This document shows, one piece after another, positions 1 to 20,947 of a stretch of 32,178 nt of DNA. Within the stretch, counting starts at the first letter, position 1. Every line of letters begins with the position of its first letter. Under the pieces are notes generated by a model. The model searched no databases, was not told where the DNA came from, and saw only the letters and a list, made by a program, of their open reading frames with translations. The position numbers and the translations under genes are program-made. The stretch spans positions 1 through 32,178 of the forward strand of contig CACMKJ010000009.1 of NCBI GenBank assembly GCA_902614225.1. The letters are read 5' to 3'. The DNA is from Rhodospirillaceae bacterium (GTDB lineage: Bacteria; Pseudomonadota; Alphaproteobacteria; TMED109).

Positions 1-433
1 TAATACATTTACTGTTTCCAAATATCTTATTTTTAAAATAACTAACAGCGTATGTACAGCTTTTACCTTTTAATTCATTAAACTTATTTGTGCCTCCTAA
101 AAAAATAAATTTACTTACTCCCACATCTGAGTCTCCAGATAGTCTGCTTATTTTTGTCCAAAACCTGTTGCCATCATCGAGTTCTACCTCACAATAAACT
201 ATAAGTTGCAGCAGCTTCCCTTTTTTATCCGTTCTATTACCAGAGCATTTACTTACAGAATATTTTCCTAAATTACTTGTTCCTTGTCCTTCTTGATTAA
301 AGTTAAGATAAATAGAACCATCTGGAAGAATAGTTTTATCTGTTATAATCACAGTAGCATAATTGTTTGATTTCCATTCAGCAGAGTTTATGTTGACGCT
401 CAATAATAAGAAAAAACTAAAAATATATTTCAT
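1..433 (-). CDS. Secreted four-cysteine array protein, copy 1 (3' end outside window)
   Basis: The reading frame opens at an ATG whose complement lies at 431-433 and runs leftward without a stop for 144 codons to the window edge, so the stop codon is missing. The N-terminus (MKYIFSFFLLLSVNINSAEW) is a typical Sec signal peptide. The mature part matches the neighbouring array proteins: a PDGS segment near residue 37, an SNLGKYSVSKCSG stretch, and a GGTNKFNELKGKSC motif near residue 113. The four family cysteines fall at residues 63, 81, 126 and 143, as in the 2389-2859 copy, its closest relative by eye. The protein should be exported and disulfide-bonded in the periplasm or outside the cell. 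No function is known to me. The GTxKF/GxxC motif resembles allene-oxide-cyclase/dirigent-like barrels, which is only an inference. Confidence 0.8.
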   Translation of the reverse strand, partial: MKYIFSFFLLLSVNINSAEWKSNNYATVIITDKTILPDGSIYLNFNQEGQGTSNLGKYSVSKCSGNRTDKKGKLLQLIVYCEVELDDGNRFWTKISRLSGDSDVGVSKFIFLGGTNKFNELKGKSCTYAVSYFKNKIFGNSKCI

Positions 434-475
434 TTTGACCTTGTATGATTAAAAATATTTATAAAAAGTAAATAA

Positions 476-928
476 TTAATTTAGCTTACATTTTTGTTTA
501 ATAATACTACCTTTTTCTTCAAATCTATTAACTGCATAAATACATTTTAAACTTTTATATTTACTATATTTACCAATAGCATCTAAATAAGTTGACTCTC
601 CCACACCAGCATCAAAGTTTTCTGAATTTCTATCAAACATTAAGACAAAATTATCATTACTCTTATTAATCTCTTTACAGTACATTTTTAGTAAAGTTTT
701 TTTATTTTCGAGTATAGTGTGATGACCCATACATTCTACTACTCCATAGCCACCTTGATTATCTTTCCAGTTTGCCTTTCCTTTAAACTGCCTTAAAGTT
801 ATTAGATCTGTAAACTTCATCACATCCGTATCTCTATCATCAGCAGTAAAAAAGAATTCTACTTCGTAATTAGAAGTAAATGCGTTAAATGAAAAAAGTG
901 ATATTAATAAAAGTAAAATAATTTTCAT
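476..928 (-). CDS. Secreted four-cysteine array protein, copy 2
   Basis: A 150-residue protein with a Sec signal peptide in about the first 19 residues (MKIILLLLISLFSFNAFTS). The core carries WKDNQGGYGVVECMG, a short loop to a second cysteine, a region ending in AGVG, then KYKSLKC and a C-terminal KQKCKLN. Cysteines are at residues 66, 84, 129 and 147, the standard four-cysteine spacing of this locus. The start is well supported by an AAGGAGA ribosome-binding sequence (complement at 934-940). It lies 42 bp beyond copy 1 in the same direction. The family is unnamed to me. Periplasmic or extracellular location is inferred from the signal peptide and paired cysteines; the biochemical role is unknown. 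Confidence 0.85.
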   Translation of the reverse strand: MKIILLLLISLFSFNAFTSNYEVEFFFTADDRDTDVMKFTDLITLRQFKGKANWKDNQGGYGVVECMGHHTILENKKTLLKMYCKEINKSNDNFVLMFDRNSENFDAGVGESTYLDAIGKYSKYKSLKCIYAVNRFEEKGSIIKQKCKLN

Positions 929-933
929 AGAAT

Positions 934-940
934 TCTCCTT
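934..940 (-). promoter_or_regulatory. Strong Shine-Dalgarno sequence of array copy 2
   Basis: On the minus strand this reads AAGGAGA, ending 5 bases before the ATG at 926-928. Most genes of this AT-rich window have only weak or no Shine-Dalgarno sequence, so this one both fixes the start and suggests efficient translation of this array member. Confidence 0.7.
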
Positions 941-962
941 TCTAATAATCTTATGATATTAG

Positions 963-1766
963 TCATTTCTTATTTCTTATCAGCAATTCTCCTTGCAAAT
1001 AAGTAATTGCCCTTCCTCCCATTGTTACTCTATCTCCTAAATATGAGCAATGTATTACTCCACCTCTTTTTGATAACTGTTTTGCTATCATATTTTGTTT
1101 ATATAATCGCTTAGACCAATAAGGAATAAGTTCACAATGTGCTCCACCAGTAACTGGATCTTCTGGTATTCCAAGTTTAGGAGCAAAAAATCGAGATACA
1201 AAATCTACGTTTTTTCCTGGCGCAGTGACAATAATACCATCGTAAGGCAATTTTCTTATTATATTTAAGTTTGGTACAATTTTAATAATTTCTTCTTCAT
1301 TATTAAAAACTACCAACCCATATTTACAATAAAGAAACGATGTTGGTCTAACACCAAAAGCTCTATACAATTCTTCTAGACTATGATTTATAATTTTAGG
1401 TTCATATGCAGGAAAGTTCATAGTCAATAGGTTACCATTTCTATTAACAGTCAAAACATCACCTGATTTAATATTAAATTCAATATAATCCGATTTATAA
1501 TTCATTTCAGAGTATATAATATGTGCAGTTGCAAGTGTAGCATGTCCACATAAATCAATTTCAACTTTAGGTGTAAACCATCTAAGAGAAAATTTATCCT
1601 TTTTTTTAATTAAAAAAGCAGTTTCTGATAAATTATTTTCTAAAGCTATTGATTGCATAGCTTCATCAGGTAACCATTTATCTAAAAGACAAACTGCTGC
1701 AGGGTTACCAGAAAATAAATTATTAGTAAATGCATCTACTTGATATATTTTTATTTTAGTATTCAT
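963..1766 (-). CDS. PhzF-family isomerase/epimerase-like protein
   Basis: This 267-residue protein is a full-length member of the PhzF family (diaminopimelate-epimerase-like fold; members include PhzF isomerase and YddE/YHI9-type proteins of unknown substrate). Family landmarks are in order: QVDAFTNNLFSGNPAAV at residues 9-25, the catalytic glutamate in NNLSETAF (Glu48), DLCGHATLA at 71-79, and EDPVTGGAHC near residue 203. The family catalyses proton-transfer isomerisation with the glutamate as acid/base and needs no cofactor. It has no signal peptide, so it is cytoplasmic. It sits inside the array of secreted proteins and points the same way, but no phenazine genes are nearby, so the substrate cannot be given. 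No clear Shine-Dalgarno sequence precedes the ATG. Confidence 0.92.
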   Translation of the reverse strand: MNTKIKIYQVDAFTNNLFSGNPAAVCLLDKWLPDEAMQSIALENNLSETAFLIKKKDKFSLRWFTPKVEIDLCGHATLATAHIIYSEMNYKSDYIEFNIKSGDVLTVNRNGNLLTMNFPAYEPKIINHSLEELYRAFGVRPTSFLYCKYGLVVFNNEEEIIKIVPNLNIIRKLPYDGIIVTAPGKNVDFVSRFFAPKLGIPEDPVTGGAHCELIPYWSKRLYKQNMIAKQLSKRGGVIHCSYLGDRVTMGGRAITYLQGELLIRNKK

Positions 1767-1863
1767 GCCATGGTTTTATCTTTAATGTCACTTAATAAAG
1801 AGCACTAAATCATTTTGTAAATTTTATTTACTTAATCATGACAAACAAAACTGAAAACATCTA

Positions 1864-2232
1864 CTAATTAATAGAACTTTTGCATTTTCCTGGTACAAAC
1901 AATACGTCATCAACATATTCTATTGCGTAAGTACAAGTAAAGCCTATAAGGTTCTTCCAAAATCCCGTTCCATCCATTATATCTGTTTGTCCTATCGTCC
2001 TGTCTAATGTAGAACCCTTTTTCCGTTTTCCCATAGAAATATAAGTATCTCTATTCTGATCCTTGTTATCACATGCAAAATACATATTTTCTAAGGTATT
2101 CTCTATAGAACCAAAACAGTTTGTAATAGCATAATTTCCTATATTATCTGTAAATGTTGACTCATTTTTAATAAGTGTTCTAGATTTATTACTATCTATA
2201 CTAATACTTTCGTTTATTGTTCTTTTTTGCAT
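1864..2232 (-). CDS. Array protein copy 3, lacking a signal peptide (possibly decayed)
   Basis: A 122-residue reading frame that aligns with the mature part of the secreted array family: FTDNIGNYAITNCFG, FACDN, MDGTGFWKNLIGFTCTYAIEY and PGKCK. Cysteines are at residues 39, 54, 100 and 117. Unlike the other copies it begins with MQKRTINESISIDS, which is hydrophilic, and an in-frame stop lies a few codons upstream of the ATG. I find no signal-peptide coding sequence in the other frames just upstream, and no Shine-Dalgarno sequence. The simplest reading is that the 5' end has been lost and this is a pseudogene in the making. A cytoplasmic variant is possible but would be odd for a disulfide-type protein. 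Confidence 0.6.
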   Translation of the reverse strand: MQKRTINESISIDSNKSRTLIKNESTFTDNIGNYAITNCFGSIENTLENMYFACDNKDQNRDTYISMGKRKKGSTLDRTIGQTDIMDGTGFWKNLIGFTCTYAIEYVDDVLFVPGKCKSSIN

Positions 2233-2388
2233 TAGATGTTATTATTAAATGCTTTGCGATAACTCTTACCGATGTAATGATAAAAATTGTTTATGTTATA
2301 TATAACCTTTGTATATAAGCGGTTAATACTTTAGCTATTTTTTTTTAGATCATTTTTTTTCATAATTTAAATTATTCTTAACTTCAAA

Positions 2389-2859
2389 TTATCTAAAATC
2401 ATTTAAAAATTTTTCATCTACTTCACATTTTAATTTAACATATGCTTGGTCCTTAAAAAAACTAACTGCATACTTACATTTTTTATTTTTAATTTGCTCA
2501 AAAGGTTTTGTTCCACCAGCTATAACAATATATCCAATGCCTGCATCAATATCCGTTCTAGATCTCTTCATAAAAAAGGTATACGAGTCGTTATTTGATA
2601 ATTCAACATTACAATAAAAGTCTTGTTCTAATAATTTATTCTCTTTTGATAGCCTATGTCCTGCACAATTAAGAATTTCATATAGCCCCAAATTATTTGT
2701 TCCGGACCCTTGTGTATCTAAAGTAGAATAAGTAGATCCATCAGGTAATATAATTTTTTTTGTAATATTTAGAGTATTAATACTATTTGATTCATAATAT
2801 TCTTCTGCATTTAATGAAAATAAATAAAAATTTAAAATAAAAAAAAGAATATATTTCAT
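2389..2859 (-). CDS. Secreted four-cysteine array protein, copy 4
   Basis: A 156-residue protein with a signal peptide (MKYILFFILNFYLFSLNA) and the family core: ILPDGSTYSTLDTQGSGTNN, NLGLYEILNCAG, an AGIGYIVIAGGTKPF motif and KKCKYAVSFF. Cysteines are at residues 65, 83, 128 and 145. It is closest by eye to copy 1 at the window start (shared PDGS.Y, GTxNLG.Y and CxYAVSxFK), which suggests a duplication that spanned or bracketed the genes between them. The C-terminal tail (DEKFLNDFR) is about 10 residues longer than in copy 2. Probably exported; function unknown. Confidence 0.85.
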   Translation of the reverse strand: MKYILFFILNFYLFSLNAEEYYESNSINTLNITKKIILPDGSTYSTLDTQGSGTNNLGLYEILNCAGHRLSKENKLLEQDFYCNVELSNNDSYTFFMKRSRTDIDAGIGYIVIAGGTKPFEQIKNKKCKYAVSFFKDQAYVKLKCEVDEKFLNDFR

Positions 2860-2983
2860 AAAAATAATTTATATTATTACTTTTAGAATTTATAGTTATA
2901 TTTGTTAAATAAAATCACTAAATTTTCTATTATTTATATAATAAGGTATTTTTAGAAATTAAATAATTAGAAATTTAACTTTT

Positions 2984-3331
2984 ATGTACTATTTAAAAAG
3001 TATGAGACTTATATTAGTAATAGCTACAATAATTTTATTTTCAGCCTGTACTACAAAATATACAGGTTCCCATACAAACCTTAAAAAATTTAATAAAGAC
3101 ATAAATTATTGTTTAAAAAAATCATGTCTGAATAAAACTAAGAATTTTTTAAATACTATGTCGATTATCTCATCTGCTTTAGCTTACGGCGGAGGAGGTG
3201 GAGGTGGAGGTAGCGGTAGCTTTCAACAGAATAAAATTTCTTATAAAGTTTTTAACCTTTGTTTGAAGGAAAAAGGATATTTTAAAGATGAAAATGGTAT
3301 TTTTGAATTACCTAATTTAACTTGTAATTAA
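2984..3331 (+). CDS. Small putative lipoprotein with octaglycine tract
   Basis: A 115-residue protein running opposite to its neighbours. The N-terminus has a hydrophobic stretch ending in LFSAC (Cys22), a lipobox-like site expected to be lipidated after export. The ATG at 3002 (seventh codon, MRLILVIATIILFSAC) is an equally plausible start and gives a more typical signal peptide. The mature protein is lysine- and asparagine-rich, has further cysteines (NYCLKKSC, NLCLKEK, LTCN), and in its middle carries eight consecutive glycines followed by SGS after SSALAY, a flexible or membrane-contacting linker. It is not a member of the four-cysteine barrel family. No named homologue is recognised; location in the outer or inner membrane is inferred. 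Confidence 0.7.
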   Translation: MYYLKSMRLILVIATIILFSACTTKYTGSHTNLKKFNKDINYCLKKSCLNKTKNFLNTMSIISSALAYGGGGGGGGSGSFQQNKISYKVFNLCLKEKGYFKDENGIFELPNLTCN

Positions 3332-3378
3332 AAAAATTATTACTTTTAACTTTTTTAGATTTAAATATTAAAAAATTT

Positions 3379-3867
3379 TTACAACCCTAATCTTTTATTA
3401 ATTTCTTTGTCCTTTGAACACTTTACTTTTATAATACTTCCTTGTCCTCTAGATCTACCTTCAGTATCAATCCATAAAACTCCATAAGGACATACCACTC
3501 CTGTAAGATTTTTATACTTATTAGTACCGTCTATAAAAGTCATTTGTCCAACACCCGCTGATTCAAAAGAATTTCTTGATAAATTAACCCAAAATTTATC
3601 TTTTTTATTATCTGTTGCTACACAATATCCGTTTAAATCAACATCTTTTTTTATTGTTGTAAATGCTGATAATACACAAGACATATTTCCATAATTTCCA
3701 AGACTATCTTCCCAAACTCCATCTGGTAAAAACATAGAGAACTTATCTTTATTAGGCATTTCTACTACATTATTATCTGAATTTTCTTTAGGGTACCAAT
3801 TAAGATTGTACCCTTCACTTAATAATTTGGTAGTAATTAAAAAACATAAAAAAATAATTTTTTTCAT
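3379..3867 (-). CDS. Secreted four-cysteine array protein, copy 5
   Basis: A 162-residue protein with a signal peptide (MKKIIFLCFLITTKLLS) and the array core: FLPDGVWEDSLGNYGNMSC, NGYCVATD, SAGVGQMTFIDGTNKYKNL, GVVCPYGV and IKVKCSKD. Family cysteines are at residues 64, 82, 126 and 150; Cys8 lies in the signal peptide. The GTNKYKNLTG segment is the best-preserved form of the family's GTGKY motif in this copy. It converges with the lipoprotein gene across a 47-bp spacer. It and copy 6 share CPYGV, so they are probably sister copies although they lie on opposite strands. Function unknown. Confidence 0.85.
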   Translation of the reverse strand: MKKIIFLCFLITTKLLSEGYNLNWYPKENSDNNVVEMPNKDKFSMFLPDGVWEDSLGNYGNMSCVLSAFTTIKKDVDLNGYCVATDNKKDKFWVNLSRNSFESAGVGQMTFIDGTNKYKNLTGVVCPYGVLWIDTEGRSRGQGSIIKVKCSKDKEINKRLGL

Positions 3868-3954
3868 ATTTCAAATCTATCTCATTCTTAATGGAATTTA
3901 TAGCGATATTTAAAAATATTTGGATATTTATGATAAGAGTATTATATTAAAAAA

Positions 3955-4404
3955 ATGAAAATATTTCTTTTACTCATTCTAATGTTACCATCAAAAATTT
4001 TTGCTAAAGAATATATTTATGAGGTAGGTGGTACAAATACATCAGCAGATGCAAATACTATAGAATATCCAGATGGAAGCAAATTCATAGTTTATCATGG
4101 TGAGTATGCTGCTTGGAAAGATAATAAAGGTGATTACGGTAGAGAAAAATGTATAGGTTATGTATTAGTTAATAAAGATAAAAGTGCTGATGTGCATTTT
4201 AGATGTATTGCTTCTAATCAGAATGGTGATACATTTTGGACAACACGTAATAGAAAATCTGTTGTTGAAGAAGGTGGAGGAGGAATAAATACCTACACAG
4301 CAGGCACAGGTAAATATAAAAAAATGGTAGGTATAAAATGTCCTTATGGAGTTCAATATCACGAAGATATTGTTTGGTACACTCATAAGTGTAAATTAAA
4401 TTAA
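3955..4404 (+). CDS. Secreted four-cysteine array protein, copy 6 (inverted)
   Basis: This is the only array member on the plus strand. It encodes 149 residues with a signal peptide (MKIFLLLILMLPSKIFA) followed by EYPDGSKFIVYHGEYAAWKD, KGDYGREKCIG, FRCIAS, an EEGGGGINTYTAGTGKYKK stretch, GIKCPYGV and THKCKLN. Cysteines are at residues 66, 84, 129 and 146. The canonical GTGKYKKMVG motif is intact. It diverges from copy 5 (87 bp apart), and its stop codon overlaps that of the convergent gene at 4401 by 4 bp. The inversion relative to copy 5 implies a past rearrangement of this segment. Exported protein of unknown role. Confidence 0.87.
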   Translation: MKIFLLLILMLPSKIFAKEYIYEVGGTNTSADANTIEYPDGSKFIVYHGEYAAWKDNKGDYGREKCIGYVLVNKDKSADVHFRCIASNQNGDTFWTTRNRKSVVEEGGGGINTYTAGTGKYKKMVGIKCPYGVQYHEDIVWYTHKCKLN

Positions 4405-4925
4405 TTAATTCTTTTCCAGTACCTTATAACTTCATCTTTTTCTTCACCCCATTCTTTATCTCTATACACTAAGGACTTTTTATCTAGTTCCCAAGATTGT
4501 TTGCCAGTTATGGAGGTAAGTACTAGTTTATTACCTTTAAAAGAAACATTATATTCTCTCATGCCTTCCCAAGGAGATTTTTTTTTTACTGTTTTAATAT
4601 TATTTTCTATCAATAATAACTTCCAATCATGCCATCCAATATGAAATAATTTACTATTAATTTTATATCTTCCCCAACCAATTAACTCTACAGACTTATT
4701 TAAATTCATATTTTTATCCATAGTAATTAAAGCATTATTGTTATTTATGACTAATACTCCTGCTACTTCTGGGTAATCATATTGTATTTTATTTTCTGTC
4801 CAATAAACGAGTTCATACCTGCCTTCTAATAAACTTTTAATATCATTTATATTATCAGATGAATTTGCCTTTAAATAATTTAATAACAAAAAAAAACTTA
4901 ATAAATAAATTTTTAAATATTTCAT
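4401..4925 (-). CDS. Secreted lipocalin-like protein
   Basis: A 174-residue protein with a signal peptide (MKYLKIYLLSFFLLLNYLKA). It is not an array copy: it lacks the four-cysteine and GTGKY pattern and has no cysteine in the mature part. The sequence LEGRYELVYWTENKIQYDYP near residue 34, then GVLVINNNNALITM, GWGRYKINSKLFHI and a late GNKLVLTS...SWELDKKSLVYR, follows the strand pattern of lipocalin-like domains (G-x-W/Y-x-L-v at the start, G.l.y...G in strand B, gd.L.L near the end). That assignment is by pattern only. An AAGGAG sequence (complement at 4931-4936) supports the start. Its 3' end overlaps copy 6 by 4 bp. Probably a periplasmic beta-barrel binding protein; ligand unknown. Confidence 0.65.
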   Translation of the reverse strand: MKYLKIYLLSFFLLLNYLKANSSDNINDIKSLLEGRYELVYWTENKIQYDYPEVAGVLVINNNNALITMDKNMNLNKSVELIGWGRYKINSKLFHIGWHDWKLLLIENNIKTVKKKSPWEGMREYNVSFKGNKLVLTSITGKQSWELDKKSLVYRDKEWGEEKDEVIRYWKRIN

Positions 4926-5005
4926 ACTCTCTCCTTTAATTAAATTAAATGCTGATTAAAATAATATAAGTACTAACTTATTGTACATAACTAAACACTA
5001 AAGCA

Positions 5006-5067
5006 CTATTCTAAAGTTAGTGAGTAGATGCTAACTTTGATTAAACAAAAGTACCAAATTATTCAGG
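5006..5067 (-). repeat. 3'-end repeat of array group B, unit 1
   Basis: This segment just after and including the last codons of the 5059 gene resembles those at 7766-7830 and 8984-9046. Shared blocks on the plus strand are CTATTCTA(A/C)AGT, a GAGTAG or ATAG(A/G) block, AACAAAAGTAC and AATTATTCAGG (the last is the stop codon plus the ProGlu codons). Conservation across a non-coding stretch suggests it moved with the gene when the copies were made, or that it is a transcription end or recombination site. Confidence 0.6.
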
Positions 5068-5550
5068 TTTTTTATAGTTTTGAACTCTTTCCAAGGTCTT
5101 ATTAGTTATTTCACAATTTCCTTGCCACATAAATTTGCTATCTATAAGTGGTGTATATGCTCCTATACATTTTTGACCTATTAATTCTTCCCATCTACCC
5201 GTGCCTGAAACAATTTCAAAGGTCTGTACAGTAGCATCTTGGTTTACGCTTCCTCTTTTTACAAAGAATTGAGCATAAAAATAGTCACCATTTACTTCTG
5301 TCCACTTAGACATAATATTTGAAGATGAAATTCCATTGATTATTTCTAGTATTCCTTTTGCTGTAAGACTACCATTAATTCCTATATTTGTTAACCACAC
5401 AGCATCATTACTCCAAGCAAAGAACTTTCTGCTATCACTAACTTCATATACATCATATTTGTCTTTACCAAATGCCTCTATTTTTAATTCTGCACTATTT
5501 ACTGAATTTAATAAAAGAATTAAGAATAAGTTTAAAATAATAATTTTCAT
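5059..5550 (-). CDS. Secreted array protein, group B copy 7 (first cysteine pair lost)
   Basis: A 163-residue protein with signal peptide MKIIILNLFLILLLNSVNSA, then ELKIEAFGKDKYDVYEVSD, an NIGINGSLTAKG block, SSSNIM, IVSGTGRWEELIGQKCIGAYTP and MWQGNCEITN, ending in NYKKPE. It is closest to the 9038 copy (ELK.EAFGK, NIGI.G, SSNIM). The third and fourth family cysteines are kept (128 and 146), but the first two are replaced by Ala64 and Ser81. Losing both members of one pair while keeping the other argues that cysteines 1-2 and 3-4 are disulfide partners. Group B proteins have an extra C-terminal helix-like tail (ERVQNYKKPE) absent from group A. Function unknown; export inferred. Confidence 0.85.
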   Translation of the reverse strand: MKIIILNLFLILLLNSVNSAELKIEAFGKDKYDVYEVSDSRKFFAWSNDAVWLTNIGINGSLTAKGILEIINGISSSNIMSKWTEVNGDYFYAQFFVKRGSVNQDATVQTFEIVSGTGRWEELIGQKCIGAYTPLIDSKFMWQGNCEITNKTLERVQNYKKPE

Positions 5551-5640
5551 AATTACCCTTTTTTTACCATATTTTATTTTTTTATAAAAAAGTACTTATT
5601 AATTAGTTAAGTAAATATATCAAAACTAAGAAAAAAAGGA

Positions 5641-5793
5641 ATGACTTTAAATAATATTGCGGACCATCTAAAAAAAAAAAAATCCTTAGTACAAGAGCAA
5701 GGAAATTTAAAGGTAGTCATGTCTATTCTATAATGAAAGGAAAAAGAATAAGAGATGAAAGGTTGAAAGAAAAGTATTGCTGTATAGGATAGT
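5641..5793 (+). pseudogene. Frameshifted fragment of a resolvase-type helix-turn-helix protein
   Basis: The stretch 5551-6026 has no intact gene. Reading plus strand from 5641 gives MTLNNIADHLKKKK. After a run of twelve adenines (5671-5682) the match continues in another frame as ILSTRARKFKGSHVYSIMKG and KRIRDERLKEKY until a stop at 5791-5793. Joined, this reproduces the pattern of the DNA-binding domain found downstream of serine-recombinase catalytic domains and in many small phage/marine proteins (S.r.IA..LN..gi.T.rGk.f....VysilK....R.eR). It parallels the fragment at 9615-9977 (IAxHL, NVYSVLKR). I read it as a decayed remnant with a homopolymer frameshift. A 32-residue product from the first frame alone is unlikely to be functional. 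The rest of 5794-6026 shows nothing I can name, apart from a GTAGG.GCGTAATCA segment at 5893-5907 that echoes the group B 3' repeat. Confidence 0.55.
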
Positions 5794-6026
5794 TTTTAGT
5801 TAATCAACTTATTTGTTTAATAAGAAGCAACTTAAAAATTTTTTTAAATGTTAACTCAGTAAAATTTTATACTAATAATTGCCTTAAAAAATGTAGGTGC
5901 GTAATCACACCACTATTTTACCGTAACCGATTATATTCTTTTTTCGATTTGCAATAATTTCAGTATTTCTTTGTACTTGAAATATATCATTTATATTCAG
6001 TTTTATAATATAAGCATAAAATAGAA

Positions 6027-6542
6027 TTATTCAGGCTTCTTATAACTTTTCATCCTTTCTATAGTCATATCAGAAACTTGGCATTTACCGCTCCATAGAA
6101 AACTAGCATTTTGAAACGCCTTATCAAAAGTTGTTATTTGTGAAAAAGCACCTAAACAAGACTCTCCAACAATCTCTAGCCACTTACCTGTTCCTGCAAT
6201 AACTCTAAATTTTTGTAAACCATAAGCATCCTGTTCACCTCTAGATGGTGTAAACTCCGTAAAAACTTTTTCTCCATCACCATCTACACTTTCACAAACA
6301 AAAAAACCTCCTTGTTCAATATTTTTTTTAAAAGTGTTGTATCCTTTACACTCTGTGCTCGCATTTGTTCCTACACTAGTTGTAGTAATTGCCCTGTTTC
6401 TAAAAAATACAATTTGTTCATCTTTGGAGATAGAAAATATTTTATCAAGACTGTAGTGTCCATAAGCATTCCATGCTAGCTCAGCAGATAAAACATTTTT
6501 AAAAATAAGAAGGTATATAACTAAGTATAGTATTATTTTCAT
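6027..6542 (-). CDS. Secreted four-cysteine array protein, group B copy 8
   Basis: A 171-residue protein from the ATG at 6540-6542, chosen over the upstream TTG at 6563 because AAAAGGAT (complement 6549-6556) is correctly spaced before it and MKIILYLVIYLLIFKNVLSA is then a normal signal peptide. The core has SVGTNASTECKG, GGFFVCESVDGDGEKVFTEF, VIAGTGKWLEIVGESCLGAF and LWSGKCQVSD, with tail YKKPE. All four cysteines are present (65, 83, 129, 154), so it looks ancestral relative to the group B copies that lost a pair. The C.G...C...DGDK.F...GTGK...G pattern is one I associate with uncharacterised secreted proteins of other alphaproteobacteria. Role unknown. Confidence 0.86.
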   Translation of the reverse strand: MKIILYLVIYLLIFKNVLSAELAWNAYGHYSLDKIFSISKDEQIVFFRNRAITTTSVGTNASTECKGYNTFKKNIEQGGFFVCESVDGDGEKVFTEFTPSRGEQDAYGLQKFRVIAGTGKWLEIVGESCLGAFSQITTFDKAFQNASFLWSGKCQVSDMTIERMKSYKKPE

Positions 6543-6849
6543 AAAATTATCCTTTTTAAACAAAACATTGTTAAATTATCATATTAATTACATCCTTACC
6601 ATAAATTTAAAATTTCTAAATCAAAGTGAATATCTATTACTCATATTTTATAGTAGATAAAGATTTGTTTTGGGGAGAAAACAGTTCGAAGGTAATATTA
6701 AATGGTATTATAAGTTATTACTCCCGAATTTACTTCTAATTTAAAGTTACTGGAAATATTTTAAAATATTGGTTTGTCAAGAATTTATTTAATATGTTGT
6801 CAAAATGTTATTGTGAATATATAACTTTGAATAAGTAATTAATCCAATA
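6543..6849. other. Intergenic stretch without a recognisable gene
   Basis: Apart from the ribosome-binding site of copy 8 at its left edge I see no reading frame with coding character, no RNA gene and no GC-rich hairpin in these 307 bases. It is very AT-rich and may simply hold the promoter of the leftward gene at 6027 and the end of the leftward gene at 6850. Confidence 0.5.
6549..6556 (-). promoter_or_regulatory. Ribosome-binding site fixing the start of array copy 8
   Basis: On the minus strand this reads AAAAGGAT, with AGGA seven bases before the ATG at 6542. It decides for that ATG over the TTG at 6563 that would add MFKKDNF ahead of the signal peptide. Confidence 0.65.
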
Positions 6850-7179
6850 TTAAAACTTTGTTTCTGAAATTATTATTCCCCTATTTGAAGAGATTTTCCA
6901 GACAATACCAGTCTCTACTTCAAAATCCTTCTCTGCCAATTTAAATATCTTTTGGCACTCCTTAAAAGCACTATCGTCTTTATATTCCCAATGATGCCCT
7001 AATCTATAAATATTGTCTTTATCCCATATTCTACTAATAGTTTGTCTTAAAGCACCTGCTTTTTTTAATTTTTCAGAATACTTAGTTATTATTTCCTGCC
7101 ATACCATTTCTGCCATTCTCATTTCACTTTTTGATATAAAATCAGTAATTATATAACTTATTAATTTTGTTTCTGCCAT
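6850..7179 (-). CDS. Small cytoplasmic protein, possible dimeric alpha-beta barrel, paralogue of 8615 gene
   Basis: A 109-residue protein with no signal peptide or membrane segment. Its centre (HWEYKDDSAFKECQKIFK) matches the 8615-8932 protein (CEYENDDSFQKCQKVFL), so the two are diverged paralogues sharing an EYxxDxxFxxCQKxF motif. The layout (strand, helix with KKAGALRQTISRIW, strand ending in EY, helix DSAFKECQKIFK, strand) is what one would expect of a ferredoxin-like dimeric alpha-beta barrel of the NIPSNAP/ABM type. That is an inference from the pattern of hydrophobic residues, not a recognised family match. It is embedded in the secreted array and points the same way as its flanking array genes. 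Function unknown. Confidence 0.72.
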   Translation of the reverse strand: MAETKLISYIITDFISKSEMRMAEMVWQEIITKYSEKLKKAGALRQTISRIWDKDNIYRLGHHWEYKDDSAFKECQKIFKLAEKDFEVETGIVWKISSNRGIIISETKF

Positions 7180-7214
7180 TTATCTTTATTAAATATTTTT
7201 CTAAATTTATAAAT

Positions 7215-7730
7215 TTAAAAACCTTGTTCTATTTTTTTAAATATTTCATCTGGAACATCACATTTCGCTTTCATTAAATAAGATGGTAAGTGTCCTTCAT
7301 TATTAAAAATAACCCATGCAGCATTACACATGATATCATTAAGTAATTTAAAAGGTCCAGTTCCTGATTTAATAGGTATCTTTACTGACATCATTTTACT
7401 GGTATCAAATTTTTTATTTGTGAAGTGTAAATAAAATTCATACTTACCTGATTTATATTGACATAGATCATTCATATCTAGAAAAGTTTTTTCACTATTA
7501 TTTTTTTGTTTTTCGTAGAAATAAGATCCTATACATTTTGAGGTTCCATTGAATTTACTATTTGTCGTAAATACACCGTTGGTATTATTAATAACGTTTC
7601 TTAATTTTTTATCTGACGTTTCCATTATTTGAGTTTCTATCGCACCAGAGTCATTTATGTAAAACTCTTTAGAAAAAGTTTTAAAATAATATAAATATGT
7701 ACCTATTAAAATCAAAAAAAAATATTTCAT
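7215..7730 (-). CDS. Secreted four-cysteine array protein, group B copy 9 (diverged)
   Basis: A 171-residue protein with signal peptide MKYFFLILIGTYLYYFKTFS. It is the most diverged group B copy but keeps the landmarks: NGVFTTNSKFNGTSKCIGSY, a longer loop to LNDLC-like MNDLCQYKSGKYEFYLHF, IPIKSGTGPFKLLNDIMC and LMKAKCDVPDE, ending KKIEQGF instead of NYKKPE. All four cysteines are present (66, 90, 135, 157); the first-to-second spacing is about six residues longer than in other copies. It is followed by the 6850 gene after 35 bp in the same direction, so the two may be cotranscribed. Exported; function unknown. Confidence 0.83.
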   Translation of the reverse strand: MKYFFLILIGTYLYYFKTFSKEFYINDSGAIETQIMETSDKKLRNVINNTNGVFTTNSKFNGTSKCIGSYFYEKQKNNSEKTFLDMNDLCQYKSGKYEFYLHFTNKKFDTSKMMSVKIPIKSGTGPFKLLNDIMCNAAWVIFNNEGHLPSYLMKAKCDVPDEIFKKIEQGF

Positions 7731-7765
7731 CTTTTATAATTAAACCTTACTTGAGAAGTCCTTAC

Positions 7766-7830
7766 CTATTATTCTACAGTTACTGAGTAGGCGTAATCAA
7801 GAATTTAACAATATAATTAAAATTATTCAG
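7766..7830 (-). repeat. 3'-end repeat of array group B, unit 2
   Basis: It resembles units 5006-5067 and 8984-9046 and covers the end of the 7823 gene. Plus-strand blocks are CTATTATTCTACAGTTACTGA, GTAGGCGTAATCA, ATTTAACAA and AATTATTCAG. The GTAATC block is shared with unit 3 and with a lone segment near 5900. Confidence 0.6.
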
Positions 7831-8359
7831 CTCTTTTATAATTATTAATTCTCTCAATTAATTTTGCAGAAAGTCCTTCTGCTTTTCCTCTCCAAATAAA
7901 ATTACCATCACCATGTTTATTTTTTCCCATTTGAAAATATGCTCCTGTCATAATAACACCCTTTAATTCTTCAAAAGGTCCATCACCACCAACCCATTGC
8001 CAACTTGCAATAGATGAACCTAGTCTATCTCCTATCATATTTCCTACATTTTTGTTTCTACTTGCTGGTATCGCTTTCAAGTAACCTTTATTCTTATAAC
8101 TGTCAGTAATAGTACACAAAATATTCTGTTTTTGATCTCCATTAATAATTTCTACTGTTCCTTCACAAACTCCGAAGCCAAACATTGATGTATTAGTGGT
8201 AAATTGTGCTCTATTGTTAAATGTCATAAATATAGTATTTTCATCAACTTTTACAAAAGAAGGAAATTGATCAATACCAGTTACCGTCATTATAAAATCA
8301 TCAGCAAACGTTTTATAAACTAATAAAATATAAACAATAAATTTTAAAAATAATTTCAT
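7823..8359 (-). CDS. Secreted array protein, group B copy 10 (second cysteine pair lost)
   Basis: A 178-residue protein with signal peptide MKLFLKFIVYILLVYKTFA. The family core is present: NRAQFTTNTSMFGFGVCEG, NILCTITDSYKNKGYLKAIP, WVGGDGPFEELKGVIMTGAY, FIWRGKAEG, and tail ERINNYKRAE. Cysteines 1 and 2 are kept (65, 82), while 3 and 4 are replaced by Met137 and Ala160, the reciprocal of the pattern in copy 7. An insertion with IGDRLGSSIASWQ lies before the GDGPF motif. The protein should be exported with at most one disulfide. Function unknown. Confidence 0.84.
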   Translation of the reverse strand: MKLFLKFIVYILLVYKTFADDFIMTVTGIDQFPSFVKVDENTIFMTFNNRAQFTTNTSMFGFGVCEGTVEIINGDQKQNILCTITDSYKNKGYLKAIPASRNKNVGNMIGDRLGSSIASWQWVGGDGPFEELKGVIMTGAYFQMGKNKHGDGNFIWRGKAEGLSAKLIERINNYKRAE

Positions 8360-8614
8360 ATATTTTTTTCTTTATTCGTTAATTAACTTATCTTATTATC
8401 TATTAATATTGAAGCTATAATTTAAATATTAGTCTCGCCCTTAGAATACAGTCTATTGATAAATATTTTAAAGTGATAAAATAATATCCACTACACTGCA
8501 ATACTACCGTTATAGACTAGACATTAACGACTAAATAAATTGATTATAAATATATAATTATTTTTGATATTAAAAATCTATAGATTAATAAATAATATAT
8601 TATATACTTGAGTT

Positions 8615-8932
8615 ATGTCAAAATTTGTAAGCATAATGACTAACACATATTCATCTGAAATAACTTATGATGAATGGTTAAAGAGAATAAATAATTTTTT
8701 TTTTCATGATAAAAAAATTGCGGAATTACTTAAGCAAAATGGTATGACTAAATGGACTATATATAAAACTGAAGATGTGGAACCATTAAAAGTTATTGCC
8801 GTATGTGAATATGAAAACGACGATTCTTTTCAAAAATGCCAAAAAGTATTTTTAAAATTTTTACCAAAAATACAAGACCTTATCATAAAAACTAATTTTG
8901 CAAGAGCGCATGTTGTAAAGGATGCAATTTAA
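8615..8932 (+). CDS. Small cytoplasmic protein, paralogue of 6850 gene
   Basis: A 105-residue protein without a signal peptide, on the plus strand between group B copies 10 and 11. It shares EY(x)xDDSFQKCQKVF with the 6850-7179 protein and has the same strand-helix-strand order, so both probably have a ferredoxin-like dimeric alpha-beta barrel fold (inferred). The N-terminal helix region (TYDEWLKRINNFFFHDKK) differs from its paralogue. The 255 bases upstream (8360-8614) contain no other gene that I can see and probably hold its promoter and that of the divergent copy 10. Function unknown. Confidence 0.72.
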   Translation: MSKFVSIMTNTYSSEITYDEWLKRINNFFFHDKKIAELLKQNGMTKWTIYKTEDVEPLKVIAVCEYENDDSFQKCQKVFLKFLPKIQDLIIKTNFARAHVVKDAI

Positions 8933-8983
8933 GAATCTGAAGAAGTTTAATTTTAAAAATACAAAATTATATTATCTTCAAGT

Positions 8984-9046
8984 CTATTCTACAGTAACAC
9001 AATAGACGTAATCTCAGATTTAACAAAAGTACTTAAATTATTCAGG
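8984..9046 (-). repeat. 3'-end repeat of array group B, unit 3
   Basis: Plus-strand blocks are CTATTCTACAGTAACACAATAG, ACGTAATC, GATTTAACAAAAGTACTTAAATTATTCAGG read with small differences from the other two units. The last block contains the stop codon and last two codons of the 9038 gene. The AACAAAAGTAC and AATTATTCAGG blocks are identical to unit 1, in agreement with the close similarity of the two encoded proteins. Confidence 0.6.
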
Positions 9047-9559
9047 TTTTTGATAGTTTTTAATTCTTTCAAACACTGCATCAGGCATATCGCCTTTACC
9101 TGCCCAACTATAAAAGTCTTCATAATATCCTTCTCCCAAATCCTTAGGCATTATTGAAGCAGTAGCGCTAATACCTTTGAATCCTATTAACTCTTTATAT
9201 CTGCCATCACCGTCAACAACCGTAAATTTTTGAGTTCCGGAGGTTGCAACATCTGTTGTATCTGAAGATGCCTTAAATTGAAAAAACATTTTATCACCAT
9301 ATTCATCAGTAATTCTACACATTATATTTGAAGAAGTTGTTCCTTTTGATATTTCTAACATACCCTCACATTCTGCTACACCTCTTATTCCAATGTTATT
9401 TGTAACAACACTTTCACTAGAATAAGTAAGGAAAATTGAACCATCAGTTAAATTAAAGACTCTTGTTTTACTTTTACCAAATGCCTCCATTTTTAATTCT
9501 GCACTGTTGATTATGATTGCATAAAAAAATGTTAAAAAAAATAAAATAATAGTTCTCAT
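9038..9559 (-). CDS. Secreted array protein, group B copy 11 (second cysteine pair lost)
   Basis: A 173-residue protein with signal peptide MRTIILFFLTFFYAIIINSA, followed by ELKMEAFGKSKTRVFNLTDG, NIGIRGVAECEG, SSNIMCRITDEYGDKMFFQF, VVDGDGRYKELIGFKGISAT and SWAGKGDMPD, ending NYQKPE. Cysteines 1 and 2 are kept (64, 81); positions 3 and 4 are Gly129 and Gly156. It is closest to copy 7, which has lost the opposite pair, so the two probably derive from a four-cysteine ancestor and have each dropped one disulfide. An AAGGGT sequence precedes the ATG. Exported; function unknown. Confidence 0.86.
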   Translation of the reverse strand: MRTIILFFLTFFYAIIINSAELKMEAFGKSKTRVFNLTDGSIFLTYSSESVVTNNIGIRGVAECEGMLEISKGTTSSNIMCRITDEYGDKMFFQFKASSDTTDVATSGTQKFTVVDGDGRYKELIGFKGISATASIMPKDLGEGYYEDFYSWAGKGDMPDAVFERIKNYQKPE

Positions 9560-9614
9560 AAAATCACCCTTATAATTTTTTAAATGAATATATTCTATAG
9601 TATAATTTTAATTT

Positions 9615-9977
9615 TTAATTATCAAATCTTTCATAAGTTAACTGCATTTTTGACCATTCAGCATCAAAAGTTTTATTTCTATGTTCTAATTGTTCTAATC
9701 TATCTAGATATCTTTTCAAAACAGAATAAACATTATTGTTATCCCATTTTTTACCACCAAATGTTTTTATATTTTTAGAATTTAAGTGTTTTGCAATTCT
9801 TCTATATCCTAATCCTTCTTCATGAAGTACCTTTATTTTACTATGTAAATCCTCTTGTTCTGATGAATATCTATCTGTATTAGAATATACAAATCTATTT
9901 GTTCTTAATGTAAATTTAAAGCAAAGAAAATGAGAGTACTTTTTTTCCTTAAATCCGAAGTCGTGCCTATTCGACGG
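9615..9977 (-). pseudogene. 5'-truncated resolvase-type helix-turn-helix protein
   Basis: The 9560-9966 interval holds no intact gene, but a minus-strand frame open from 9977 to a stop at 9615-9617 is clearly protein-like. It contains RYSSEQEDLHSKIKVLHEEG, LGYRRIAKHLNSKNIKTFGG, KKWDNNNVYSVLKRYLDR and ends LTYERFDN. This is the recombinase-associated helix-turn-helix pattern (G.gyr.IA..LN...ikT..Gk.W....VysvLKR) seen in phage and marine bacterial proteins. No ATG, GTG or TTG occurs before the conserved part, and the frame runs into a stop inside the glmS end, so the N-terminus is missing. The plus-strand reading frame in the same place is a shadow. Its partner fragment is at 5641-5793. Probably a remnant of a mobile or phage-derived gene. 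Confidence 0.6.
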
Positions 9978-11778
9978 TTACAGATTTTGCTAGATTTCTT
10001 GGTTGATCAACGTCAGTACCTTTAAAACAGGCTATATGATAAGCTAATAATTGTACTGGTAAAGCGCATACTATGGGTTGTAAATAATCATTACATTTTT
10101 TTATACTAAAAATGAGATCAGATAGATCTTCTAAATTTTTTTTGCCTTCTTTATCAGTAATACAAATTATTTTTCCACCTCTAGCTTTTACTTCCGCGAG
10201 ATTAGAATAAGTTTTTTCATATAAATTATTAGTTGGTATGATTCCTATTACAGGAACACTTTCATCTATTAACGCTATCGGGCCATGTTTTAACTCTCCT
10301 GCAGCATAACCTTCTGCATGAATATAGCTTATTTCTTTTAGTTTTAATGCTCCCTCCAAAGCTAAACCATGCCCCATACCTCTACCTATATATAAAACAT
10401 CTTTTGCATTATAAATTTTTGAAGCAATATCTCTTAGTTCATTTTCTTTTTCTAATATATCATTAAGTAAACTAGGTAAATCTAGTAATTGTGTAATTAT
10501 TTTGCTTTCAAAATTATCATTAATAAAATTTTTATTTTTTCCTAATAAAATTGATATTATCAATAATGTAAGCAACTGTGTTGTAAATGCCTTTGTGGAA
10601 GCTACGCCTATTTCTGGTCCTGCTAAAGTAAATATATTTTCATCTGATAGTCTTGAAATACTGCTATCTAAAACATTAACAATCGAAATAGTTTTTAATC
10701 CATGTTTCTTAGCCTCTTCAAGACTTGCTAAAGTATCACGAGTTTCTCCAGATTGTGAAATAAATATTACTACCTCACCTTCTGTTTTTAGTAGTTTTCT
10801 ATATCTATATTCTGAAGCAATGTCTACATTAGCACCTATATTAGCAAACTCTTCAAACCAAAACCTAGCTATTCTACAAGCAAAAGCTGATGTTCCACAA
10901 GCTATCAAACTAATTTTTTTAATATCTGTTTTTAATATCTCACTATTTATTTTTATAATTTTTTTTTCTGGATCTATAAAAGACTTTAAAGTTTCTCCTA
11001 TTACTGTAGGCTGTTCATAAATTTCCTTATGCATAAAATGTTTATAACCACCTTTTTCAATAGATTGCCTTGAAATACTTGTAATACTTATTTCCCTATC
11101 TACTTTATTTTTACCGTGATAAATAAAAATATTTTTATTATCAACAATTGCCCAATCGTCATCTTCTAAATAACTAATTTTTTTTGTAAAAGGTGCTAAG
11201 CCAATAGCATCTGATCCTATAAAATTATTTTGTTCTCCATAACCTACTGCAAGTGGACTTCCTCTTTTAATAGCTAGTAATTTATTTGTTTTAGTAAAAA
11301 GCACTGCTAAGGCAAATGCTCCTTTTAATTCTGTTAAAAGTTTTTCTACTATCTCGGGATAGTCATGTCCTTGATCTAAATAATCAGTAATTAGGTGAGC
11401 TACTACCTCACTATCTGTTTCACTTTTGATTAAAGATTTATTACTTAATATATTTTTAATTTCTTTATAATTTTCAATTATACCATTATGAACAATTGCT
11501 ACTTTATTTGTAGCATGTGGATGAGCATTAAGCTCATTTGGAGATCCATGCGTTGCCCATCTGGTGTGTGCAATACCAATGTTACCTTCTATAGGTTTTT
11601 CTTTTATTATTGCTTCTAGGTTTCCTATTTTACCTAACGCTACTCTTTTGACTATTTCCTTATTAACTAATGTGGCAAGGCCTGCTGAATCATAGCCTCT
11701 GTAAGCTAACTTTTTTAATCCTTCAATTAAAGCATAAGTACAATTGTTATTACTAGCTATACCTACAATTCCACACAT
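9967..11778 (-). CDS. glmS: Glutamine--fructose-6-phosphate aminotransferase (isomerising)
   Basis: A 603-residue GlmS, the usual length. It makes glucosamine-6-phosphate from fructose-6-phosphate and glutamine, the first step to UDP-GlcNAc for peptidoglycan and lipopolysaccharide. The N-terminal Ntn amidotransferase domain starts MCGIVGI with catalytic Cys2, and has HTRWATHG and HNGIIENY. Two SIS sugar-isomerase domains follow, with ACGTSAFAC, SQSGETRDTLA and EGALKLKEISYIHAEGYAAG, and the conserved end DQPRNLAKSVTVE is intact. An AAGG sequence precedes the ATG. It lies 3 bp downstream of glmU in the same direction and is surely cotranscribed with it. With only 3 bp between the genes and no leader, there is no room for a glmS-ribozyme control element. 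Confidence 0.98.
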   Translation of the reverse strand: MCGIVGIASNNNCTYALIEGLKKLAYRGYDSAGLATLVNKEIVKRVALGKIGNLEAIIKEKPIEGNIGIAHTRWATHGSPNELNAHPHATNKVAIVHNGIIENYKEIKNILSNKSLIKSETDSEVVAHLITDYLDQGHDYPEIVEKLLTELKGAFALAVLFTKTNKLLAIKRGSPLAVGYGEQNNFIGSDAIGLAPFTKKISYLEDDDWAIVDNKNIFIYHGKNKVDREISITSISRQSIEKGGYKHFMHKEIYEQPTVIGETLKSFIDPEKKIIKINSEILKTDIKKISLIACGTSAFACRIARFWFEEFANIGANVDIASEYRYRKLLKTEGEVVIFISQSGETRDTLASLEEAKKHGLKTISIVNVLDSSISRLSDENIFTLAGPEIGVASTKAFTTQLLTLLIISILLGKNKNFINDNFESKIITQLLDLPSLLNDILEKENELRDIASKIYNAKDVLYIGRGMGHGLALEGALKLKEISYIHAEGYAAGELKHGPIALIDESVPVIGIIPTNNLYEKTYSNLAEVKARGGKIICITDKEGKKNLEDLSDLIFSIKKCNDYLQPIVCALPVQLLAYHIACFKGTDVDQPRNLAKSVTVE

Positions 11779-16256: not shown

Positions 16257-17492
16257 TCATCTCTCTGACAAAGCTGAAGAAAAGTTAGCAAAAATGGGTT
16301 CTAGTAAATAGTCACTGATAGTTCGTTTACCTATATTAATTAAAGCTAAAACTTGTGTTCCAGGATACATGTAAAAGTTTTCACTTTTTCCTTGAAAGTA
16401 ATTTTTATTAGTTTCTATTCTTATCTCAAAGTAAGGTTCTTCTAAATTGTTATCAGAGTATATAGCATCAGGGCTAATTGTAGTTACCCTTCCTACAATT
16501 GAATCATACATAGAGTTATTTTTACCAACTAATTTAACAGTAACACTTTGATCTTTTTTAACATATCCTACCTCATCAACTGGTAATTTTGAACTAATTA
16601 TTAACTTATCATTTACTGGGACAACTTCAAAGAGAGGTATTCCTGGCTTGATAACCCCTCCTACAGTATCTACAAACCTTTGTTTAATAATACCTTCTTC
16701 TGGTGCTTTTACTAATGTTCTATTTAAGCTATCTTTAAATTTATTTTTCCTCTCTATAAGTTCTTCATACTCAGAAATCTCTTTTAACAATTGAGTTCTT
16801 ACATCAGTTTCATAGGTCTCCTTTATTTTTTTAATTGAAGATACTGAACTCTCAATTTTTAATAGAACAGCATTTCTCTCTTTTAGTAGATCTAAATGAT
16901 TGAGTCTGTTAGTTAGCTGTTCCTCTAGTAATGATTTACTTATCTTTACTTGCTCTTCTAATAGTTTAAAACTATTTTTTTCATTTTTTAGTATTTTTTC
17001 TTGCTCTTCAAGTAAAGCCTTGTTTTTATTTTTTCTGACTTGAAATAATTGTAATGCATCATCAACTAAATCTGGATAATCAGTCTTCATATCTTCAGGA
17101 AAAATTAGTTTTTTATTTTCAGATTCAGCTCTTAATCTCAATATATTTATCGATAATGTAGTTATTCTTTTTTCAATTTCAGAGAAATCAGCTAAGGTTT
17201 TCACGGGTTCTAATTCTAATAAAATATCATTTTTTTTTACTATATCTCCTATATTTGCATAGATTTTTTTAATTATTCCTCCCTCAAGGTGTTGTATAAC
17301 TTTAACTTTTGATGAAGGAACTACTGTTCCTTTAGTTTCTGATATAATATTTAAAGAGGTATTATTGAAATAGTAAACAACTATTGATACTGCTCCAAGT
17401 ATCAAAAAAATAAAAAAAGAAAAGAAAAAGAAAAAACTTTCTTCCTTTTTTTCTATTTTTTTTAGTTCACTTGCTTCTTTGACACTAAACAT
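16257..17492 (-). CDS. HlyD/PrtE-type type I secretion membrane fusion protein
   Basis: A 411-residue periplasmic adaptor that links the inner-membrane ABC exporter to a TolC-like channel. The N-terminal cytoplasmic stub is followed by one membrane segment (about residues 18-45, FFFFFSFFIFLILGAVSIVV). The typical HlyD half-lipoyl signature HLEGGIIKKIYANIGDIVKK lies at about 68-87. A long coiled-coil hairpin follows (about 120-255, rich in KNEKN, EEQ and LLEEQ), then the second lipoyl half with TLVKAPEEGIIKQRFVDTVG and a beta-barrel with PVDEVGYVKKDQSVTVKLVG. Length and order match PrtE/AprE. One base separates it from the upstream ABC gene at 17494, so they form an operon with the secreted protein at 15894. 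Confidence 0.94.
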   Translation of the reverse strand: MFSVKEASELKKIEKKEESFFFFFSFFIFLILGAVSIVVYYFNNTSLNIISETKGTVVPSSKVKVIQHLEGGIIKKIYANIGDIVKKNDILLELEPVKTLADFSEIEKRITTLSINILRLRAESENKKLIFPEDMKTDYPDLVDDALQLFQVRKNKNKALLEEQEKILKNEKNSFKLLEEQVKISKSLLEEQLTNRLNHLDLLKERNAVLLKIESSVSSIKKIKETYETDVRTQLLKEISEYEELIERKNKFKDSLNRTLVKAPEEGIIKQRFVDTVGGVIKPGIPLFEVVPVNDKLIISSKLPVDEVGYVKKDQSVTVKLVGKNNSMYDSIVGRVTTISPDAIYSDNNLEEPYFEIRIETNKNYFQGKSENFYMYPGTQVLALINIGKRTISDYLLEPIFANFSSALSER

Positions 17493-17493
17493 A

Positions 17494-19158: not shown

Positions 19159-19212
19159 ACGTTAATATTTTAGAAAAAATATTGTAAAAAAGATATAACT
19201 ATATCTATTTAG

Positions 19213-19241
19213 TTGTTTCTAACATATAAAATATGTATATT
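19213..19241 (+). promoter_or_regulatory. Sigma-70-type promoter of tRNA-Asn
   Basis: TTGTTT at 19213-19218 and TATATT at 19236-19241 are separated by 17 bp, the ideal spacing for a housekeeping promoter. The tRNA begins at 19251, so a transcript would start only a few bases before the mature 5' end. In so AT-rich a sequence some matches arise by chance, but the position directly ahead of the tRNA supports this one. Confidence 0.55.
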
Positions 19242-19250
19242 AATGTTTTA

Positions 19251-19325
19251 TCCGCGGTAGCTCAGTGGTAGAGCAATCGGCTGTTAACCGATCGGTCGTA
19301 GGTTCGAATCCTACCCGCGGAGCCA
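19251..19325 (+). tRNA. tRNA-Asn (anticodon GTT)
   Basis: A complete cloverleaf can be drawn. The acceptor stem TCCGCGG pairs with CCGCGGA, the D-arm is GCTCAGTGGTAGAGC, the anticodon stem ATCGG/CCGAT encloses loop CTGTTAA with anticodon GTT, and the T-arm GTAGGTTCGAATCCTAC has the standard TTCGAAT loop. The discriminator is G, and CCA is encoded at 19323-19325. It reads codons AAC/AAU, heavily used in this asparagine-rich genome. It lies on the opposite strand to the flanking secretion genes. I saw no second copy of its 3' end in the window that would mark an integrated island. Confidence 0.97.
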
Positions 19326-20942: not shown

Positions 20943-20947
20943 AAATT

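What the first reader, a model, noticed from the sequence alone, without database searches (positions are those of the whole stretch)
1..9559. An eleven-copy array of diverged small secreted four-cysteine proteins
Eleven genes in 9.5 kb encode variants of one exported domain (signal peptide, YG..C.G, second Cys, GTGKY..L.G..C, final KC). The copies are strongly diverged in sequence, fall into two groups (with and without an NYKKPE-like tail), and include one inversion and one copy without a signal peptide. Such a local expansion is what one sees for proteins under diversifying pressure (effectors, toxins or antitoxins, receptors for phage or prey, matrix proteins). I know no named family or system of this kind. 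The GTGKY/G.xC pattern suggests an allene-oxide-cyclase/dirigent-like beta-barrel, which is an inference.
Basis: partly seen in the sequence, partly recalled or inferred. Interest (0 to 1): 0.82.

Follow-up and report, generated by a model that had tools for sequence, protein, structure and literature searches.

The report
Shuffled repertoire of exported small barrel proteins
A streamlined open-ocean bacterium carries dozens of diverged versions of one small exported barrel-shaped protein, stacked as single-gene units at hot spots next to glmS and tRNA genes and apparently swapped between genera, a hitherto unnamed repertoire whose job is still unknown.

Summary
The eleven-copy array is real and is the edge of something larger. 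The same genome holds 58 matches, about 55 intact, in 1.06 Mb that is only 55% complete. Large repertoires (5-31 copies) occur in ten more genomes of three genera of one marine alphaproteobacterial family. The proteins have a signal peptide and a confidently predicted 8-stranded barrel of the allene-oxide-cyclase/dirigent/DUF3237 fold, but pass no Pfam or NCBIfam cut-off. Their four cysteines are lost only as the pairs C1+C2 or C3+C4, implying two disulfides.
The expansion is not local tandem duplication. Only 10 of 217 copies have their nearest relative in their own genome. Some copies are 87-91% identical across genera whose GlmS is 66% identical. The genes sit in additive islands between same-direction copies of the glmS 3' end or of tRNA fragments. 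Selected orthologs are under purifying selection (dN/dS 0.13), so ongoing diversifying selection is not supported.
My best guess at function is periplasmic capture of diverse small molecules; protection against phage or bacterial proteins is the main rival. Neither is shown.

The parts
1..433 (-). family member, 3' end cut by contig edge
476..928 (-). family member
1864..2232 (-). family member without signal peptide (domain starts at profile position 26)
2389..2859 (-). family member; 91% identical ortholog in same-genus genome G003
3379..3867 (-). family member
3955..4404 (+). family member, inverted; 91% identical to a copy in another genus (G017)
5059..5550 (-). family member, NYKKPE group, lacks C1/C2
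6027..6542 (-). family member, NYKKPE group
7215..7730 (-). family member, same group without the tail
7823..8359 (-). family member, NYKRAE tail, lacks C3/C4
9038..9559 (-). family member, NYQKPE tail, lacks C3/C4; structure predicted (pLDDT 89.6)
9967..11778 (-). glmS; its 3' end is the attachment-like hot spot that bounds the island
8984..8998 (-). degenerate copy of glmS 3' end (0 mismatches to RTWACYGTMGARTAG)
7769..7783 (-). degenerate copy of glmS 3' end (1 mismatch)
5913..5927 (-). degenerate copy of glmS 3' end (2 mismatches)
5006..5020 (-). degenerate copy of glmS 3' end (2 mismatches)
9618..9917 (-). orphan helix-turn-helix ORF resembling the C-terminal part of a recombinase (Pfam Recombinase 27.2 bits, cut-off 21.1); recurs 66-68 bp after glmS ends or their copies in relatives
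963..1766 (-). non-member cargo: PhzF family isomerase
2984..3331 (+). non-member cargo: lipoprotein-like ORF, no family
4401..4925 (-). non-member cargo: 174-aa exported ORF, no family; its block is found beside the 3955 homolog in G017
6850..7179 (-). non-member cargo: DUF6974; 92% nucleotide-identical block in G004 island
8615..8932 (+). non-member cargo: DUF6974-like (below cut-off); block shared with G004 island

Best explanation
The array is the glmS-side part of a genome-wide, cassette-borne repertoire of exported AOC/dirigent-type barrel proteins. Supported by sequence evidence: one family; one predicted fold; two cysteine pairs; stacking of mostly single genes in additive islands between same-direction copies of glmS or tRNA parts; patchy presence and cross-genus identity that imply exchange of these genes between genomes. 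Inferred: each variant folds in the periplasm (or is released) and uses its barrel cavity to bind a different small, probably lipophilic molecule, acting alone, to scavenge or to neutralise it. A cell keeps many variants and swaps them by site-specific integration or recombination at the hot spots.
For: Family and copy number. Fold; the nearest solved folds include small-molecule enzymes or binders (AOC2, dirigents, PloI4/AbyU cyclases, DUF3237). Paired cysteine loss: CCCC 163, xxCC 43, CCxx 4, xxxx 4, one exception among 217; about 7 changes at C1/C2 and 2 at C3/C4 on the tree, concordant. Hydrophobic signal-like N-terminus in 204 of 216. Hot spots: glmS-end copies all in the direction of glmS in window, G004, G014, G017 and G019; strong matches downstream of 8 of 31 glmS-island members versus 0 of 180 others, p 9e-8; multiple same-direction tRNA-Ser(TGA) copies in G001 and G017, and tRNA-Met(CAT) fragments in G000 C8 and C20; tyrosine integrases beside tRNA-Ser in G017 and G004. 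Exchange: array pairs at nt 0.87-0.93 versus glmS 0.70 and glmU 0.62. Purifying selection between orthologs. Cargo rich in GSTs, CoA-ester enzymes, dehydrogenases and DehI, i.e. small-molecule chemistry. No polar residue apart from the cysteines is near-invariant (best R 85%), as expected for varied binding rather than one shared catalysis.
Against: No ligand, expression or localisation data. The cavity could not be inspected (coordinates not provided), and the more hydrophobic strand face is only slightly more conserved than the other. Some cargo matches phage-defence models (Mads, PtuA/B, AriA), which fits a protective role as well. No transporter is linked to individual copies. An integrase for the glmS island was not found.
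Confidence: 0.4

Rival explanations
1. The barrels are periplasmic protection factors: each variant neutralises one phage, bacteriocin, lysozyme or other protein attacker, so a mobile, many-allele repertoire is favoured by frequency-dependent selection.
For: Single-gene units that must work alone, very patchy presence and high turnover, defence-type genes among the cargo, disulfide-stabilised exported fold.
Against: No partner toxin or attacker is linked to the copies; metabolic enzymes dominate the recognised cargo; orthologs show no accelerated change; no phage relatives were found.
Confidence: 0.27
2. The barrels are secreted enzymes (cyclases or isomerases like AOC or PloI4) with diversified substrates.
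For: Closest solved folds include cyclases and dirigent proteins; catabolic enzymes in the same islands.
Against: No near-invariant catalytic-type residue across 217 members; no linked biosynthetic partners seen.
Confidence: 0.15
3. The proteins are surface or matrix components without ligand specificity, and the copies are a by-product of island growth.
For: Large numbers and a shared strong promoter-like repeat (TTGATA-17-TATAAT) before many copies.
Against: Strong purifying selection on the mature protein but not the signal peptide (pN/pS 0.18 versus 0.56); no adhesive domains.
Confidence: 0.1
4. The glmS-like and tRNA-like repeats are chance or gene-conversion debris and the arrays arose by old tandem duplication plus loss.
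For: Several glmS-end matches in the window have 1-2 mismatches in AT-rich DNA; intergenic DNA decays faster than coding DNA, so homology ending at ORF edges is partly expected.
Against: Same orientation in all cases with glmS on the contig, longer copies including upstream glmS codons in G004, G017 and G019, fixed 66-68 bp spacing to the HTH ORF, repeated tRNA fragments, and cross-genus identity.
Confidence: 0.08

Closest known systems
Allene oxide cyclase / dirigent barrel superfamily (PF18678 AOC_like, PF03018, DUF3237 PF11578, DUF3224, spirotetronate cyclases AbyU/PloI4)
   Same: 8-stranded antiparallel barrel, Foldseek probability 1.00 to DUF3237 9m2z, RPA1785 3c5o, AOC2 4h69, dirigents, PloI4; GTGKY..L.G turn
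   Different: Below every Pfam cut-off; exported with two cysteine pairs; dozens of copies per genome; no catalytic residues shown
Additive flexible genomic islands (e.g. fGI-2 of Methylophilaceae with repeats of the last 20 bp of tRNA-Lys, PMC10872708)
   Same: Repeated insertion at one gene end, leaving direct repeats of that end; variable cargo, many unknown genes
   Different: Here one protein family fills several such islands in the same genome, and glmS is used as well as tRNAs
Tycheposons
   Same: tRNA-flanked islands with tyrosine recombinases and exchangeable cargo in streamlined marine bacteria (as described second-hand in PMC10872708)
   Different: Mostly one-gene units with many internal attachment-like copies; integrase seen only in two tRNA-Ser islands here
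Integron cassette arrays
   Same: Many mostly single-gene units of unknown function between recombination-site-like repeats
   Different: Repeats are glmS/tRNA copies, not attC-like; among the island ORFs scanned only two integrases of phage type were recognised
HIMB59/AEGEAN-169 metagenomic islands of hypothetical proteins (PMC10734472)
   Same: Probably the same or a related lineage (AG-series single cells labelled Rhodospirillaceae; inferred); two islands of unassigned function reported
   Different: In the passages searched the paper does not describe this protein family

Membership tests
Pfam AOC_like PF18678 | score above gathering cut-off 25.9 | tested here: not met
   one of 52 members reaches 17.5 bits, the rest nothing at E 0.01
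AOC/dirigent/DUF3237 barrel fold | 8-stranded antiparallel barrel matching solved members | tested here: met
   two subgroup models, pLDDT 94.0 and 89.6; Foldseek E 1e-5 and 3e-4 to DUF3237, several AOC/dirigent/cyclase hits; TM-scores moderate, lower for the second model
Dirigent PF03018 | Pfam dirigent match | tested here: not met
   no match at E 0.01 in 52 members
DUF3237 PF11578 | Pfam match | tested here: not met
   no member matches; two other island ORFs do
AOC or dirigent activity | cyclisation or radical-coupling activity | not testable with these tools
   needs an assay
Additive flexible genomic island | serial insertions at one gene end leaving direct repeats | tested here: met
   glmS-end copies and tRNA copies in one direction; insertion itself not observed
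Additive flexible genomic island | variable cargo at the same site between genomes | tested here: met
   glmS-adjacent islands of G000, G004, G014, G017, G019 and G020 differ
Additive flexible genomic island / tycheposon | cognate integrase | tested here: inconclusive
   tyrosine integrase beside tRNA-Ser in G017 and G004; none found for the glmS site
Tn7-type element at glmS | Tns transposition genes downstream of glmS | tested here: not met
   window island ORFs scanned, no Tns genes; the glmS end is copied, which Tn7 does not do (own knowledge)
Integron | IntI and attC sites | tested here: inconclusive
   repeats are glmS/tRNA copies; genome incomplete, attC not modelled

The most novel reading that the evidence does not exclude
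A bacterial counterpart of odorant-binding or immune repertoires: an open, horizontally shuffled pool of single-gene cassettes encoding one exported barrel scaffold with many specificities, maintained at tens to perhaps about 100 variants per streamlined genome and renewed by serial integration at glmS and tRNA genes.
Probability: 0.3. Interest if true: 0.9.

Novelty: new variant of a known kind. Interest (0 to 1): 0.72.

Why it matters
Genomes of this type are thought to be streamlined, yet here roughly 2.4% of the assembled DNA (about 55 intact genes of about 465 bp in 1.06 Mb, my arithmetic) is one unannotated protein family. If the barrels bind different molecules, this is a large natural library of exported binders in an open-ocean lineage and a direct handle on what such cells sense, eat or resist. 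The islands also show how one scaffold can be diversified by shuffling genes between genera rather than by mutating copies in place.

Tried and rejected
Phage origin: no hits in viral contigs with one subgroup (the other alignment was too diverged to scan), none in phage records with one copy, one weak PHROG, no convincing viral fold (herpesvirus hits at TM 0.3-0.43 judged noise). Recent tandem duplication: rejected. Diversifying selection between orthologs: not seen. The 60-bp repeat of the C1-type array as an attachment site: its core is better read as a sigma-70-like promoter (TTGATA, 17 bp, TATAAT) that travels with genes, though in G003 it directly follows tRNA-Ser. Toprim, RIP and ETRAMP Pfam hits are below cut-off and inconsistent, hence chance. 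Rfam: nothing. PDB sequence search: nothing. Papers naming the single-cell genomes: none held. Reading barrel-interior specificity from strand parity: no clear signal.

Full report
Observation. Reading the window in six frames gives eleven related ORFs between 1 and 9559, ten on the minus strand and one on the plus strand, the first cut by the contig edge and one (1864-2232) without a signal peptide. A profile from 52 full-length members of the same genome finds all eleven and 47 further matches on seven other contigs, 58 in all, of which three are fragments or pseudogene-like. The genome is 1.06 Mb at 55% completeness, so a full repertoire near 100 is a plausible extrapolation, not a measurement.

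Range. In the host's family (28 genomes held), all six members of the genus carry 5-56 copies at E 1e-10, one genome of genus g3 carries 21, four of g6 carry 6-25, and the other genera none to two. Among the 385 genomes sampled across the class (which include the window's own genome), only six others hit: one strong single hit (G283) and weak ones. The strong one sits in a contig syntenic with G000 C3 beside tRNA-Tyr, so it is an old copy, a transfer or a contaminant contig. Named relatives found by sequence are AG-series single cells labelled Rhodospirillaceae and two marine MAGs. From the labels and the 26-29% GC I infer an AEGEAN-169/HIMB59-type lineage; this was not tested.

Protein. No Pfam, NCBIfam or PDB-sequence match passes a cut-off. 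AlphaFold2 with the family alignment gives a signal helix plus eight antiparallel strands at pLDDT 94, and the NYKKPE-type window copy 9038-9559 gives the same order of strands, plus a C-terminal helix, at 89.6. The two models were compared by strand order and by shared PDB hits, not superposed. Among 217 members the four cysteines disappear only in pairs, C1 with C2 and C3 with C4, with one exception. On a tree built without those columns the losses are repeated and concordant, though too few independent pairs on well-supported branches exist for a formal sign test. I read this as two disulfides in an oxidising compartment.

History. Best own-genome paralogs are at a median 36% identity, best same-genus relatives at 59% and best other-genus relatives at 53%, and only 10 of 217 have their nearest relative at home. 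Five G000-G017 pairs from different genera are 87-91% identical in protein and 87-93% in DNA, while GlmS is 66%/70% and GlmU 52%/62% between the same genomes. Between genera the DNA match usually stops within a few bases of the ORF (median 4 bp upstream, 7 bp downstream; 74% of 38 pairs within 100/60 bp), whereas 37% of same-genus blocks run 300 bp or more. Faster decay of intergenic DNA contributes to this, so it supports, but does not prove, single-gene units. Pairs with at least 72% identity have a median dN/dS of 0.13, with the signal peptide relaxed (0.56 against 0.18 as pN/pS). Choosing similar pairs biases this low, and selection between paralogs is saturated and untested.

Location. 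The window array begins just downstream of glmS. The same holds in G004, G014, G017 and G020, and by a contig-end match probably in G010. Degenerate copies of the last glmS codons and stop recur in the islands: window 8984, 7769, 5913 and 5006; six in G004; three in G014; one beside glmS in G017 and two on its contig C3; two in G019. Wherever glmS is on the same contig they point its way. Strong matches follow 8 of 31 glmS-island members against 0 of 180 others (p 9e-8; the pattern was drawn up after seeing some of these copies, so the p value is optimistic). The cleanest copies carry one of two right arms that interchange between genomes. G019, which lacks a barrel array, has the same architecture with other cargo, so the island type does not depend on this cargo. 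An orphan recombinase-like HTH ORF lies 66-68 bp after several of these ends and is a candidate mobility factor or remnant.

Other arrays use other ends: many same-direction full or partial tRNA-Ser(TGA) copies in G001 C5 and G017 C15, tRNA-Met(CAT) fragments in G000 C8 and C20 with the full gene beside the C12 members, and tRNA-Ser(GGA) beside arrays in G002, G003 and G017. Tyrosine integrases abut the tRNA-Ser genes in G017 and G004. In the C1-type array a conserved promoter-like repeat precedes many genes. The remaining island genes with a recognised family are mainly small-molecule enzymes (GST, CoA-transferase, enoyl-CoA hydratase, alcohol dehydrogenases, DehI) with some defence-type matches.

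Mechanism and novelty. The genomic vehicle fits the published notion of additive flexible genomic islands, including an example marked by repeats of a tRNA end (PMC10872708). Islands of hypothetical proteins are reported for HIMB59 (PMC10734472). I found no description of this protein family. The most likely function, by fold, export, lone-gene autonomy and cargo context, is capture of different small molecules in the periplasm. Protection against proteinaceous attackers is the main rival and cannot be separated from it by sequence alone.

Noticed in passing
window 9618-9917 (-); G004 C11 6214, 7127, 7562, 10975; G017 C22 14883; G019 C4 17366, 18359, 20386: Orphan recombinase-C-terminal/HTH ORFs recur 66-68 bp after several glmS 3' ends or copies of them; possible split recombinase or mobility factor of the glmS islands.
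   Followed up: partly
L010 (G000 C1) 4389-11681 and about 25 sites in other loci and relatives: A ~60-bp repeat with a sigma-70-like promoter (TTGATA-17-TATAAT), often ending a few bases before the ATG, precedes many island genes, suggesting shared regulation and short leaders.
   Followed up: partly
window 16257-27113: Type I secretion set (ABC 17494-19158, HlyD-like 16257-17492, TolC-like 25176-27113) beside a 1394-aa repeat protein with thrombospondin type 3 repeats (20948-25132), likely a secreted giant adhesin.
   Followed up: no
window 19394-20942: Small cytochrome-like protein followed by a flavocytochrome-type oxidoreductase, looking like a sulfide dehydrogenase pair.
   Followed up: no
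L130 (G283 C8) 6803-7234: Single intact family member in a genome of another family, next to tRNA-Tyr and polysaccharide genes, syntenic with G000 C3; transfer, relic or contamination.
   Followed up: partly
L050 139-615, L108 9765-10220, L109 1119-1619: More distant exported GGTGKY-type barrels occur in the same islands and may be the source of the expanded family.
   Followed up: no
L062, L063, L065, L078, L093, L114 (pooled scan of 130 island ORFs): Islands carry several glutathione S-transferases, DehI-type proteins and a few Mads, PtuA/B and AriA-like defence genes.
   Followed up: partly
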